Shown: positions 11,076 to 29,290 of the stretch, in pieces
How positions within the stretch are numbered: position 1 is the first letter of the stretch
How the letters are laid out: every line of letters begins with the position of its first letter
Assembly: GCF_023715655.1 (NCBI RefSeq)
Contig: NZ_JAMBON010000021.1
Coordinates: 1 to 54,398 of the forward strand
Length of the DNA: 54,398 nucleotides
DNA from: Oceanobacillus luteolus
Lineage (GTDB): Bacteria > Bacillota > Bacilli > Bacillales > Amphibacillaceae
Direction: 5' to 3'
Made by a program: the position numbers and the translations under genes
The notes under the pieces: model-generated
Database searches by the model: none
Seen by the model: the letters and a program-made list of their open reading frames with translations, nothing else
Told to the model about the DNA's origin: nothing

Positions 11076-11438
11076 AATCGAGATTGCATCGCACGCAAGA
11101 GTCCCTCGCGTGCAATTGTTGCTTTGGAATCGTGGGTGAATCGAACGCAAGGTTCTCTTACGTGCGATTGTCGCATTAGAATCGTGGGTGAATCGAACAC
11201 AAGGTTCTCTTACGTGCGATTGTCGCATTAGAATCGTGGGTGAATCGAACGCAAGGGTCCCTCACGTGCGATTGTTGCATAGAAATCGTGGGTGAATCGA
11301 ACGCAAGGGTCCCTCACGTGCGATTGTTGCATAGAAATCGTGGTCGAATCGCAAGCAAGGGTCCCTCACGTGTGATTGTCGCATTGAATTCATTGGTGAA
11401 TCAAACGTAAGAGCCCAGCAAGTTCGGCTGCCACTTAA
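11076..11438. repeat. Tandem array A: 52-bp units, seven copies
   Basis: The motif AATCGTGGGTGAATCG recurs at 11076, 11128, 11180, 11232, 11284, 11336 and 11387: five exact 52-bp steps and a final step of 51. The first and last units are diverged; the inner ones are nearly identical. Each unit contains an imperfect 23-bp palindrome centred on a T, clearest in unit 1 with arms GCACGC and GCGTGC, and in later units with the core AAGGGTCCCT. There are no unique spacers, so it is not a CRISPR. Open frames on the minus strand here are by-products of the repeat. The array fills most of the 600-base gap before the amylase-like gene. Confidence 0.9.
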
Positions 11439-11580
11439 AAAGTCCCGCAAGCTGCTATCATTTTCAGTATCACCATGAAGTTATGAAGGTTTTTTAACAA
11501 TTTTTGTATTTCAATTGACTAATAAATAATTTCGTTAATAATAGTACAGGACACGTAATAGAAATGATGGGGGAACAGTG

Positions 11581-13083
11581 ATGAAGAAGAACATGATAAT
11601 GAGTATTGCGGTATTATTTTCACTATTAATATATGGTCTACCAATAGAAGCTGCGGACAGACAGATTGAAGATGAAATCATCTATAAAGTCATGATCGAC
11701 CGCTATAATAATGGTGATTTCTCTATCGATGAAGGAGTGGATGTGGATGATCCGCAAGCCTATCATGGTGGAGATATCGAAGGAATTAAAAAACGCCTCA
11801 ATGAAAAAGCAGACCTTGGAGTAACGACGATTGCCCTTTCCCCGATAATGGCTAATTCGGAAAATGGTTTTCATGGATATTGGGTAGAAGATTTTACGGA
11901 AATGGAAGAACAGTTTGGTACAATAGAGGATCTTGATGAGCTTGTAGCAGAAGCGCATAAACTTGGTATGAAAGTCGTCATTGAATTCGTCACGAATTAT
12001 GTTTCGCGCGATCATGAAATAGCACTGGAGCCAGAGTTTGCCGATTGGATCTTGACTGATGAAGTGAACGGTCCGGATTGGACAGAGAATGTGGTTCAAT
12101 TAAACCAAGATAATCCAGAGGTACAGAAATTCTTGATTGATGCTGCTTCGTTTTGGCTAAAAGAAACGAATGTAGATGGATTAGTGCTTCACGCAGTTGA
12201 CCAATCTTCTGTTGATTTTTTATCGAATATTACATCAGAACTTAAAAATAGTTATCCCGATCACTATTTGATAGGCGATGTTCTAAATCCCGAATCAGAT
12301 GTTAGTGAAATTATGGAGAATACAGAACTGGATGCTGTTGATAATTATGCGTTAAGTAGAGGAATAGCGGAAGTGTTCAGCGAGGTCGACCAGTCGCCTG
12401 AGGAGATTTTAGAGCTCCATAAAGAATATGCTGAAGCGGGAAGTATACTGTTTGTAGATGATTTCTATTCTGAGCGTTTTACACAGAAGTTTTCCGAGAA
12501 CGGCAGAAATTCGGTAACGACATGGACGCTGGCCTTAACTTATATGTACACCACACCTGGAACTCCGATGATAATACAAGGTTCTGAGGTAAGTATGTAC
12601 GGTGAAACTGCCGAGGATTCTCAGCGGCTCGTCCCACACCATAGTGGAGAACCAGAGTTGAAAGAATTCCATGATCGAATCTCTTCTTTGCACGATGAAT
12701 TCCCTGCATTACGCCACGGTGATTTTGAGTTAGTAGATTCAAGAGATTCGTTTGCTGTATTTAAGAGGACATATGAGGATGAAACATTGTATGTTGCTAT
12801 CAATAACGGCAGTGAATCGAGCTATATAGATATAACGGATGTGGATTCTGATAAGATGTTAAGAGGTTATCTTGGAGATAATATCGCCCGTGAAAATGAA
12901 GAAGGAAACCACCGGATCGGAATACCTCGTGAATCCGTAGAAGTTTATGAAGTAGTCGACTATGAGGGCTTCAACTGGCTTCTGATTTCACTCGTCGGTG
13001 GAGTGATGATTGTTTTTGTTACTGGAATCATCTATCTGACCTTGAAGCAGAAGAGACGAGAAGCAAGCGAACAAACCAAATAA
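11581..13083 (+). CDS. Membrane-anchored alpha-amylase-fold (GH13) protein, probably catalytically inactive
   Basis: This 500-residue protein has a signal peptide (about 1-24), an extracytoplasmic GH13-type barrel starting DEIIYKVMIDRYNNGD, and a C-terminal transmembrane helix (about 464-488) with a basic tail. The fold is recognisable from YHGGDIEGI, DLGVTTIALSPIM and HGYW. All four GH13 catalytic regions are altered: region I reads EFVTNY (normally D..xNH, near 130), region II GLVLHA (normally GFRxDA, near 197, nucleophile Asp replaced by His), region III IGD (normally GE, near 230), region IV FVDDFYSE (normally FvxNHD, near 290). It is therefore inferred to be a pseudo-enzyme, perhaps glycan-binding. 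ATG at 11581 is preferred to the overlapping GTG at 11578. A terminator follows. Confidence 0.85.
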   Translation: MKKNMIMSIAVLFSLLIYGLPIEAADRQIEDEIIYKVMIDRYNNGDFSIDEGVDVDDPQAYHGGDIEGIKKRLNEKADLGVTTIALSPIMANSENGFHGYWVEDFTEMEEQFGTIEDLDELVAEAHKLGMKVVIEFVTNYVSRDHEIALEPEFADWILTDEVNGPDWTENVVQLNQDNPEVQKFLIDAASFWLKETNVDGLVLHAVDQSSVDFLSNITSELKNSYPDHYLIGDVLNPESDVSEIMENTELDAVDNYALSRGIAEVFSEVDQSPEEILELHKEYAEAGSILFVDDFYSERFTQKFSENGRNSVTTWTLALTYMYTTPGTPMIIQGSEVSMYGETAEDSQRLVPHHSGEPELKEFHDRISSLHDEFPALRHGDFELVDSRDSFAVFKRTYEDETLYVAINNGSESSYIDITDVDSDKMLRGYLGDNIARENEEGNHRIGIPRESVEVYEVVDYEGFNWLLISLVGGVMIVFVTGIIYLTLKQKRREASEQTK

Positions 13084-13086
13084 TTT

Positions 13087-13120
13087 AAAGCGCTTGGTGC
13101 GAAATCCGCCAAGCGTTTTT
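13087..13120 (+). terminator. Terminator after the amylase-like gene
   Basis: AAAGCGCTTGG and CCAAGCGTTTTT pair around a 10-base loop and end in a T run. Confidence 0.85.
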
Positions 13121-13153
13121 ATGTCCAGTAAGACGTGTTGGTTGAATGGCGCT

Positions 13154-13415
13154 TAGTTAGGGATAGCAGTGGTTAATTTTCCTGAATGTCGAGAAGGGAA
13201 TCAAATTCGGGAAGATATGATGTGTTTGTTTTCCCGATTGTTGAGAAGGCAATTCTGTTCGGGAAGATATAATGCGTTTGTTTTCTCGAATGTTGGCAAG
13301 CAACTCTTATTCAAGAAAATATCTATTGTTTATCATCCCGAAGCACGTGGGTAGTTGTAGTTTGGGAGAATAAACTTGTAAATTTTCTCGAAGTGAGGGC
13401 TTCGTATGTTTGAAA
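13154..13415. repeat. Tandem array B: 52-bp units, about five copies
   Basis: The motif TTCGGGAAGATAT recurs at 13206 and 13258, with diverged copies at 13310 and about 13361, and a partial unit before 13206. The step is again 52 bp, but the sequence is unrelated to array A. In each unit TCGGGAAGATA pairs with a T-rich arm ending TTTCCCGA, giving an imperfect palindrome about 31 bp long. It fills the gap between the convergent amylase-like and degV genes. No coding sequence is supported in it. Confidence 0.8.
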
Positions 13416-28432: not shown

Positions 28433-28454
28433 ACTGTACACTCCTTTAATTTTT

Positions 28455-28675
28455 CCCATTAAAAAAAGCCCACTCATTCCCTAATCTGAAGGGACGAATG
28501 AACCGCGGTGCCACCCTTATTACTCTGTGTTTGCACACAGAATCACTTTAATCTCCAATAAGCTCAGAAGCCCAATTCCAATCCACCTTGATGCTTGTTT
28601 CCACCAACCACAAGCTCTCTACCAAATCAGCGGGCAATTGTACTCTATCTTCGTCATTGCTCGAGTTATTTTGTT
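28455..28675 (-). promoter_or_regulatory. T-box leader of trpS
   Basis: Reading the minus strand, the T-box core GGGTGGCACCGCGG (about 28500-28515) is followed by a terminator built from GTTCATTCGTCCC and GGGAATGAGTGGGC with a run of seven T's just upstream of trpS. A structured stem I region with GGTGG (a TGG specifier would be expected for Trp) lies upstream. Uncharged tRNA-Trp is expected to allow readthrough. Confidence 0.92.
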
Positions 28676-28681
28676 GAGTTT

Positions 28682-28710
28682 ATTATATAGAGTTTTTGGG
28701 GGGAATGCAA
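28682..28710 (-). promoter_or_regulatory. Sigma-A promoter of the trpS leader
   Basis: Minus-strand TTGCAT and TATAAT are separated by exactly 17 bases, upstream of the T-box. Confidence 0.75.
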
Positions 28711-28730
28711 GGGGATGGGGGCCTGTATTG

Positions 28731-29290
28731 AATTGACAAGAGAATAGGTCTCTCTTGTCACGAAGAAGATCTATTTATGTGTAGAACCGACAATAGACCT
28801 GTTCTCTTGTCATGAAGGACGTCTGTTAATGTGAAGAACCGACAATAGAGCTGCTCTCTTGTCATGAAGGGCGTCTGTTAATGTGAAGAACCGACAATAG
28901 AGCTGCTCTCTTGTCATGAAGGGCGTCTGTTAATGTGAAGAACCGACAATAGAGCCGCTCTCATGTCACGAATGGGGTTAGTTTTTGTGAAGAACCGACA
29001 ATAGAGCTGCTCTCTTGTCATGAAGGGCGTCTGTTAATGTGAAGAACCGACAATAGAGCCGCTCTCATGTCACGAATGGGGTTAGTTTTCGTGAAGAATA
29101 GACAATAGAGCCGCTCTATTGTCAGGAATGAATTCAGTTTTCATGAAGAACCGACAATAGAGCCGCTCTCATGTCATGAAAGAGTTCAGTTTTTAAGAAG
29201 GACTGACGATATAGCCATTCTCTTGTACGGAATGCTATGTGTCTTGATAAGAAAACTTATAGTAAGTCACTTCTCTCGTCATAAACCATT
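28731..29290. repeat. Tandem array C: 52-bp units, about ten or eleven copies
   Basis: The motif CAATAG recurs at 28791, 28843, 28895, 28947, 28999, 29051, 29103 and 29155, always 52 apart, with a diverged copy at 29207 and a first unit 54 bases before the series; a further remnant is near 29259. Each unit carries a near-perfect 23-bp palindrome, GACAATAGAGC-T-GCTCTCTTGTC type, centred on one T. Between palindromes there are two unit types (AAGGGCGTCTGTTAATGT and AATGGGGTTAGTTTTCGT). No coding sequence, promoter or unique spacer is seen. Confidence 0.92.

What the first reader, a model, noticed from the sequence alone, without database searches (positions are those of the whole stretch)
11076..29290. 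Three unrelated intergenic arrays share a 52-bp period
Arrays at 11.1, 13.2 and 28.7 kb have no sequence in common, yet each repeats at 52 bp (51-54 at the edges) and each unit holds an imperfect palindrome (23 bp in A and C, about 31 bp in B). 52 bp is close to five turns of B-DNA (5 x 10.4), which would place every palindrome on the same face. A shared spacing with different sequence suggests one mechanism (a recurrent mobile or protein-bound repeat, or a structured RNA) rather than chance slippage. I know of no named repeat family with these properties.
Basis: partly seen in the sequence, partly recalled or inferred. Interest (0 to 1): 0.78.

Follow-up and report, generated by a model that had tools for sequence, protein, structure and literature searches.

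The report
Replication-oriented 52-bp palindromic repeat arrays
Some Bacillus-like bacteria carry short tandem DNA arrays between genes whose units are nearly always 52 base pairs long, centre on a palindrome and mostly point the way DNA replication runs, even though arrays of different families share no sequence; I found no description of them in open-access papers.

Summary
Arrays A, B and C are real and intergenic, show no detectable similarity to one another, and all repeat at 52 bp. Each belongs to a separate family with other members in the genome. C's family is the largest: 28 of 397 sampled genomes of the order, 12 of 136 genera. In the type-C arrays, 200 of 204 next-neighbour steps are exactly 52 although array consensuses average 54% identity. 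The core, ATAGA-N5-TCT, changes about six times less between neighbouring units than the spacer.

The main new result is orientation. Type-C units follow the replication fork at 58 of 61 loci in eight genomes (one of the 58 is undecided). With leave-genome-out, composition-controlled scoring they do so in 35 of 36 confidently oriented arrays. The A pair and 5 of 6 B arrays agree.

Best explanation: a replication-polar, five-turn-phased protein-binding satellite, homogenised by unequal recombination. The binding protein was not found. RNA, REP/RAYT and RTP/Ter readings fit less well. 'One mobile repeat family' is not supported; 'one mechanism' is supported but not proven.

The parts
11088..11411 (+). 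Array A: 6.2 units of 52 bp, dyad AATCGAACGCAAGGGTCCCTCACGTGCGATT; between a DUF1516 gene and an alpha-amylase-family gene
   Evidence: TRF; palindrome; sibling array L086 2891-3339 (51 bp) aligned at 45 in the orientation that agrees with the leading strand, 28 in the other, null maximum 15; neighbours
13177..13384 (+). Array B: 2.3 clear units of 52 bp plus decayed units (by eye); dyad around GGGAAGATA...TTTTCCC; between the amylase gene and a convergent DegV-family gene
   Evidence: TRF; units; B family in the same genome (C133, C122, C32, C165) and in congener G022, periods 51-52
28720..29241 (+). Array C: 8.3 clear units of 52 bp plus weaker edge units; motif strand = leading strand although both neighbouring genes are on the other strand
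   Evidence: TRF; model hits; orientation z=5.8; neighbours and GC skew
28997..29019 (+). Example of the 23-bp imperfect palindrome of one type-C unit (GACAATAGAG-CTG-CTCTCTTGTC)
   Evidence: sequence; column information
27443..28477 (-). trpS (tryptophan--tRNA ligase), with T-box leader 28487-28666 (-): ordinary neighbour of array C
29356..30264 (-). NERD-domain protein gene, other neighbour of array C

Best explanation
The arrays are chromosomal satellites of protein-binding sites in which geometry more than sequence is under selection. Each unit carries a dyad-symmetric core for a dimeric DNA-binding factor. Units sit five helical turns apart so that successive factors line up on one face, and the unit is asymmetric so that the array has a direction, set parallel to the replication fork. 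Arrays grow and shrink by whole units through unequal recombination or slippage, which homogenises each locus and leaves decayed units at the edges. The spacer drifts while core, flanking AA steps, spacing and orientation are kept. The polarity suggests that the bound array acts on something that travels along the chromosome in one direction (the replisome or a segregation or translocation machine), as a polar landmark or barrier. SHOWN by computation: shared period, separate sequence families, core constraint, whole-unit copy-number change, replication orientation of type C. INFERRED: protein binding, helical phasing as the reason for 52 bp, and the target of the polarity; also that A and B are the same device with other cores.
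For: Spacing: 200 of 204 next-neighbour type-C steps are exactly 52, 3 are 51 and 1 is 53; five larger steps of 103-114 set aside (which leaves out the 51-bp array L180 and the doubtful L087, L187, L188). With such arrays kept, 177 of 187 steps are 52. Mean identity between 44 array consensuses is 54%. Mismatch between neighbouring units: core 0.044 and AA steps 0.053 against spacer 0.251 and loop 0.298. Arms are alike across loci of one genome (0.246; G083 0.144 while its spacers differ at 0.581) and unlike between genomes (0.478-0.524), as a factor with genome-specific specificity would leave them. Across families the arms covary (50 against 24.9 cells changed on both sides, 0 of 500 shuffles; two of the five measures do not exceed shuffles). 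Orientation: 58 of 61 loci in eight genomes by ori/ter geometry, p 3e-14, and above an assumed 80% gene-like bias, p 0.0009; 57 of 60 without the undecided G009 locus. Leave-genome-out and composition-controlled: 35 of 36 at |z|>=2.5, 39 of 41 at >=1.5, 43 of 46 in all. It holds in 4 of 5 arrays whose two neighbours both oppose the leading strand and 10 of 11 with disagreeing neighbours. A pair concordant, B 5 of 6. Orthologous arrays of sister species differ in length by 52, 156, 208 and 259 bp.
Against: No binding protein was identified; the two candidate families tested do not track the arrays (Y1 transposase, RTP). Distribution is patchy: 24 of 28 genomes of the genus show no type-C match at the threshold used (where only 150 of several hundred first candidates per genome were scored). 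Three unrelated cores in one genome would need several factors. Phasing of AA/TT is weak. Clear exceptions exist: L089 in this genome is a good array in the wrong orientation (z -4.2), and G273 and G112 hold 51-bp arrays. The orientation of A and B rests on seven comparisons only.
Confidence: 0.4

Rival explanations
1. Neutral hairpin satellite: palindromic units expand by slippage at forks, and expansion or survival depends on which strand is the lagging-strand template, so only one orientation accumulates; 52 bp is inherited within type C and favoured by helical geometry elsewhere.
For: Whole-unit copy change between sister species and decayed edges; higher-order 104 and 156 bp repeats; no trans factor found among the two families tested; no match on plasmid and phage records, searched with one array each.
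Against: Core and AA steps change about five to six times less than spacer even between neighbouring units, and the core stays at 0.045-0.065 mismatch across genomes and families. A near-symmetric palindrome should form much the same hairpin on both strands (inference), so about 95% orientation is hard to get from hairpins alone. One period in three unrelated families is unexplained.
Confidence: 0.25
2. Single-strand mobile repeats (REP/REPIN-like): units are copied or moved by an HUH enzyme acting on the lagging-strand template, which sets orientation, and then amplify in place.
For: IS200/IS605 elements are reported to follow replication direction for this reason (PMC5371812, passages read). 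REPs too lie mainly between unidirectional and convergent genes (PMC3733652, abstract and passages), as here: 14 tandem, 3 convergent, 1 divergent of the 18 of 20 arrays with a called gene on both sides.
Against: Array-bearing G010 and G024 have no Y1 transposase match, while 12 of 16 type-C-free congeners do. The REP end tags are rare or absent (GTAG 17, CGTC 0 of 253 units). Edges decay instead of ending sharply, and arrays stay at orthologous sites.
Confidence: 0.15
3. Leading-strand non-coding RNA: arrays are transcribed as repeated hairpins, and lie on the leading strand as highly expressed genes do.
For: Stem columns covary across families; orientation equals the usual direction of transcription.
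Against: Within the genus pairing barely exceeds shuffles (76.3 against 74.4%). G-T and A-C mismatches sum to 121 and 132 over the ten column pairs 16-25, although single pairs lean either way (37 to 3, 13 to 66); an RNA would tolerate only one kind. Units follow replication in 4 of 5 cases where both neighbours oppose it. No promoter-like site around C and only a hairpin of the array itself as a terminator-like site. No Rfam match at A, B or C.
Confidence: 0.1
4. Coincidence: ordinary minisatellites that happen to share a period.
For: Type C's common period is shared descent, so it counts once; A and B families have few known members.
Against: Unselected samples: 4 of 5 intergenic arrays at exactly 52; A, B and C are unrelated by sequence and lean to the same orientation.
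Confidence: 0.05

Closest known systems
REP / BIME / REPIN elements (palindromic extragenic repeats, some tied to RAYT Y1 transposases)
   Same: Short intergenic imperfect palindromes, many loci per genome, clustered, patchy across species, mostly between unidirectional or convergent genes
   Different: Near-strict 52-bp head-to-tail period, no GTAG/CGTC tag, no consistent Y1 transposase, the spacer repeats as part of the unit, orientation tied to replication
MIRU-VNTR and other bacterial minisatellites (recalled, not searched)
   Same: Intergenic tandem units of about 50 bp that vary by whole units between relatives
   Different: Several unrelated sequence families share one length, a constrained palindromic core (type C), and replication polarity
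Ter/RTP fork barriers, KOPS/SRS, Chi (replication- or segregation-polar motifs; recalled)
   Same: Orientation parallel to the replication arms; asymmetric sites around a dyad in Ter
   Different: These are single short motifs; here five-turn-spaced arrays at 2-14 type-C loci in each of the eight genomes; RTP not associated
CRISPR arrays
   Same: Regularly spaced palindromic element in an intergenic array
   Different: The spacer is part of the repeat (units match at 82-87% over their whole length in A, B and C), not unique; Rfam search of the window gave only a T-box and a tRNA

Membership tests
REP/BIME (GTAG or CGTC superfamilies) | GTAG or CGTC tetranucleotide at one end of the palindrome | tested here: not met
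   GTAG in 17 of 253 type-C units, CGTC in 0, near the stem ends
REP/BIME (GTAG or CGTC superfamilies) | Associated Y1 transposase (RAYT) in the genome | tested here: not met
   PF01797 in 10 of 12 array-bearing genomes (not G010, G024) and in 12 of 16 type-C-free congeners: no association
CRISPR | Unique spacers between identical repeats | tested here: not met
   Whole 52-bp unit repeats at 82-87% matches in A, B and C
CRISPR | Adjacent cas genes | not tested
   Immediate neighbours of A, B, C are DUF1516, amylase, DegV, trpS and NERD genes; neighbours of other arrays not annotated
RTP/Ter replication terminators | RTP protein encoded in the genome | tested here: not met
   PF02334 above its cut-off in 1 of 14 array-bearing genomes (G107); four more have matches below it
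RTP/Ter replication terminators | Polar fork arrest | not testable with these tools
   Needs 2D gels or replication profiling
Minisatellite / VNTR | Tandem units differing by whole copies between close relatives | tested here: met
   Two orthologous loci in G083, G119, G148: anchor-to-anchor lengths differ by 52, 156, 208 and 259 bp
Structured RNA | Stem conservation with wobble tolerance on one strand only | tested here: inconclusive
   Mismatches 121 G-T and 132 A-C in sum, against a one-strand RNA; but arms covary across families
Helically phased binding array | Spacing an integral number of turns, kept while sequence changes | tested here: met
   200 of 204 next-neighbour steps exactly 52, 177 of 187
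Helically phased binding array | Phased AA/TT or bound protein on one face | tested here: inconclusive
   AA steps of type C 31 and 21 bp apart; Fourier test weak; protein binding not testable here

The most novel reading that the evidence does not exclude
These bacteria carry a chromosome-wide polar addressing system: arrays built to one geometric rule (a dyad every five helical turns, asymmetric, parallel to the replication arms), implemented with several unrelated sequences, that a replication- or segregation-coupled machine reads by spacing and direction more than by sequence.
Probability: 0.3. Interest if true: 0.93.

Novelty: new variant of a known kind. Interest (0 to 1): 0.85.

Why it matters
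Known polar chromosomal signals (recalled: Chi, KOPS/SRS, Ter) are short motifs. Here whole satellite arrays follow replication direction at 58 of 61 loci, with near-exact spacing and a constrained core. That makes two questions directly testable: what reads direction on a bacterial chromosome, and whether selection can act on repeat spacing independently of sequence. The arrays could also serve as copy-number markers in the species that carry them.

Tried and rejected
Rejected as explanations: one recurrent mobile repeat (A, B, C unrelated); a Y1/RAYT link; an RTP/Ter link; an RNA hairpin, although cross-family covariation taken alone would have suggested it. A plasmid or phage home: no match, but one array was searched per collection by blastn, which would miss diverged arrays. 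An early idea that the consistent T/C mismatch of the genus's units was a strand tag was dropped: many arrays have a T/A pair there. Phased A-tract curvature is at best weak. Comparing the A and B sites with O. alkalisoli and O. indicireducens was uninformative: too diverged; TRF finds no arrays in those two 21 kb loci.

Selection and weak points. Loci L084-L103 and those were chosen by similarity to C, so their shared period is homology. In one search I left out three rows: L094 and L186 (single weak hits, both against the leading strand) and L142 (too little flank; against by that flank); with them, and without the ambiguous L087, gives 33 of 37. One search includes L087, which counts against. 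L172 and L177 have almost no GC skew (0.013, -0.013), so their leading strand is weakly known; without them 33 of 34 at |z|>=2.5. In some searches L038 was placed on the wrong strand by a crude pattern, and its four units went into A1 and model R1 that way; the models and one search show the other strand. mixes thresholds (R1 at E<=0.001 for G009 and G024, R2 at E<=0.0001 for the rest), uses rounded lengths for five of eight genomes and puts the terminus half way in all; only for G009 was it checked by GC skew. Of its three exceptions two lie near the assumed terminus and one 24 kb from dnaA. I counted the G009 array at 3.13 Mb as concordant, but R1 hits it on both strands, best on the strand against, and cannot decide it; the one at 3.41 Mb is weak (z -1.8). 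The weak G009 hit L094 (below one search's threshold, against the rule) is not. One search's dedup dropped second arrays on one locus; one search repeats the count. The class survey does not show how many of its 398 genomes lie outside the order, so absence elsewhere is weakly tested.

Literature: ten searches over open-access full text; four returned nothing, and of the rest I saw the listings. No title or abstract listed describes such arrays; closed journals (the Oceanobacillus genome papers perhaps among them) could not be searched. Passages read: PMC3119063, PMC3733652, PMC5371812.
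Full report
What is there. The window is contig 120 of a 4.0 Mb draft genome. Its amylase gene has two relatives among named genomes, in Oceanobacillus alkalisoli and O. indicireducens (64-65% identity). TRF finds the three arrays at 52 bp, between ordinary genes: DUF1516, alpha-amylase, DegV, trpS with its T-box, and a NERD-domain gene. A, B and C are unrelated at the level of shuffled controls; B was represented in that test by its sibling in L090.

Is the common period real? 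In stretches chosen without regard to arrays (480 kb of this genome, 400 kb of complete congener G009) there are five intergenic arrays with period 30 or more: four are exactly 52, one is 55. Two further tandem repeats there lie inside ORFs (periods 30 and 51). A 360 kb sample of four other congeners has no intergenic array and two inside ORFs (51 and 39). Across everything fetched, 54 of 61 distinct intergenic arrays are 52 and 4 are 51 (similarity-biased).

Three families. C recovers diverged sibling arrays in its own genome at 68-70% identity over several units. B recovers siblings on C133, C122, C32 and C165 and in G022. A has one sibling, at 51 bp, in L086. A type-C model built from 52 units of 13 arrays and a broader one from 44 units of 39 loci find the family in 4 of 28 genomes of the genus, then 11 of 299 (first model) and 28 of 397 (second model) genomes of the order, the latter in 12 of 136 genera. 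In 398 genomes of the class there are 5 positives, all of the same order; the output does not say how many of the 398 lie outside it. One array each was searched in plasmid and phage records without a match.

Anatomy of the type-C unit. In 253 units of 44 arrays the informative columns are A20 T21 A22 G23 A24, T30 C31 T32 and C38, with AA at 11-12 and 42-43 on the same strand. Loop and most of the spacer are free. Of 204 next-neighbour steps, 200 are 52, three are 51 and one is 53; five larger steps (103-114) were set aside as skipped or merged units. A count that keeps the 51-bp arrays gives 177 of 187. Between neighbouring units mismatch is 0.044 in the core and 0.053 in the AA steps but 0.251 in the spacer. 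The stem arms are shared between loci of one genome (0.246) more than between genomes (0.478-0.524), while spacers differ widely within a genome (0.504) and between (0.648-0.680). Across families the arms covary (three of five measures exceed all shuffles, two do not); within the genus they hardly do. Mismatches compatible with wobble on one strand are not commoner in sum than those for the other. This looks like a dyad-symmetric binding site with drifting specificity more than like an RNA stem.

Dynamics. At two orthologous loci of sister species with flanks over 90% identical, anchor-to-anchor lengths are 512 and 253 bp (five units less one base apart) and 311, 259 and 103 bp (differences 52, 156 and 208), with decayed units conserved at the edges. 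At a third locus an array persists between genomes whose flanks are 70-78% identical, although the unit sequence has changed. So arrays are old, stay in place, and are homogenised locally.

Orientation. In G009, with dnaA at 0.6 kb and the GC-skew switch between 1.7 and 1.9 Mb, all 13 type-C arrays lean with the fork, 10 of them well beyond shuffled controls and 3 within or at them; one of the three (3.13 Mb) is undecided, since model R1 hits it on both strands. The same geometry in seven more genomes gives 58 of 61 loci in all: G009 13/13, G024 2/2, G145 7/8, G199 12/12, G356 13/14, G269 7/7, G142 2/3, G312 2/2. Without the undecided locus it is 57 of 60 (p 6e-14). Leaving out the fifth of each arm next to the assumed terminus gives 53 of 54. 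Five genome lengths are rounded. Separately, scoring each array with a matrix built without its own genome or group, with column-shuffled matrices as composition control, gives 35 of 36 at |z|>=2.5, 39 of 41 at >=1.5 and 43 of 46 overall (rows left out and weak skews are told in Tried and rejected). Some loci are orthologous between sister species, and the two data sets overlap in G009, G024 and G145, so they are not fully independent. The exception in this genome, L089, is a good array. Where both neighbouring genes oppose the leading strand the unit still follows replication in 4 of 5 cases, array C among them. A and its sibling agree with the rule, as do 5 of 6 B arrays (GC skew of only 3 kb for five of those six).

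Mechanism. Shown: one period in unrelated families, constrained core, whole-unit turnover, replication polarity of type C. Inferred: a dimeric factor on the core, 52 bp chosen as five helical turns, and a function that depends on direction. I give this 0.4. A neutral hairpin satellite filtered by fork direction is the main rival (0.25); it explains turnover and polarity but not the constrained core. A lagging-strand HUH-type origin (0.15) explains polarity, as reported for IS200/IS605 (PMC5371812), but the Y1 family does not track the arrays. A leading-strand RNA (0.1) is not excluded without RNA-seq.

Novelty. Ten open-access literature searches listed no description, though closed journals were out of reach. 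The kind (palindromic intergenic tandem repeat) is known; the combination of one near-exact period across unrelated sequences with replication polarity is, as far as I could see, not. I file it as a new variant of a known kind, with a 0.3 chance of something categorically new.

On re-reading the calls I corrected the count of coding repeats, marked the undecided G009 locus, added the less favourable spacing count, the weak-skew loci, the mixed thresholds and the limit of the class survey, and measured the unit differences. None of this moved the odds.

Noticed in passing
L034 1902-2394 (congener G009, about 2.10 Mb): A 55-bp intergenic array (8.8 copies, 93%), the one intergenic array of the unselected samples that is not 52 bp
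   Followed up: partly
L182 10725-11019 (G059): A 52-bp intergenic array without a recognisable type-C core on the same contig as a type-C array: a possible further sequence family with the same period
   Followed up: partly
L030 16204-16455 (G009): A 52-bp array of another sequence, between convergent genes, core not recognised
   Followed up: partly
L172 17833-17913, L176 17682-17770, L178 487-575: Two-copy repeats of about 42 bp (close to four helical turns) containing ACTTCGGTCA in the f11 genus; two of the three overlap an ORF of 100 aa or more
   Followed up: no
G000 contigs C11, C129, C130, C139, C151, C171: Six equal-scoring copies of a Y1 (IS200-like) transposase, 141.7 bits each: perhaps a recently active element in this genome
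   Followed up: no
L015 127-439: A 52-bp array whose unit contains AGCCCGAA like the f11 type-C arrays but with a shortened core (weak model scores): possibly type C with a compensated deletion
   Followed up: partly
G126 contig C13, 159533-161040: Eight equal-scoring type-C hits spaced 208 bp apart, apparently a long higher-order array
   Followed up: no
window 142-193: A lone weak type-C hit on the minus strand (19.5 bits, E 0.012), possibly a decayed single unit
   Followed up: no
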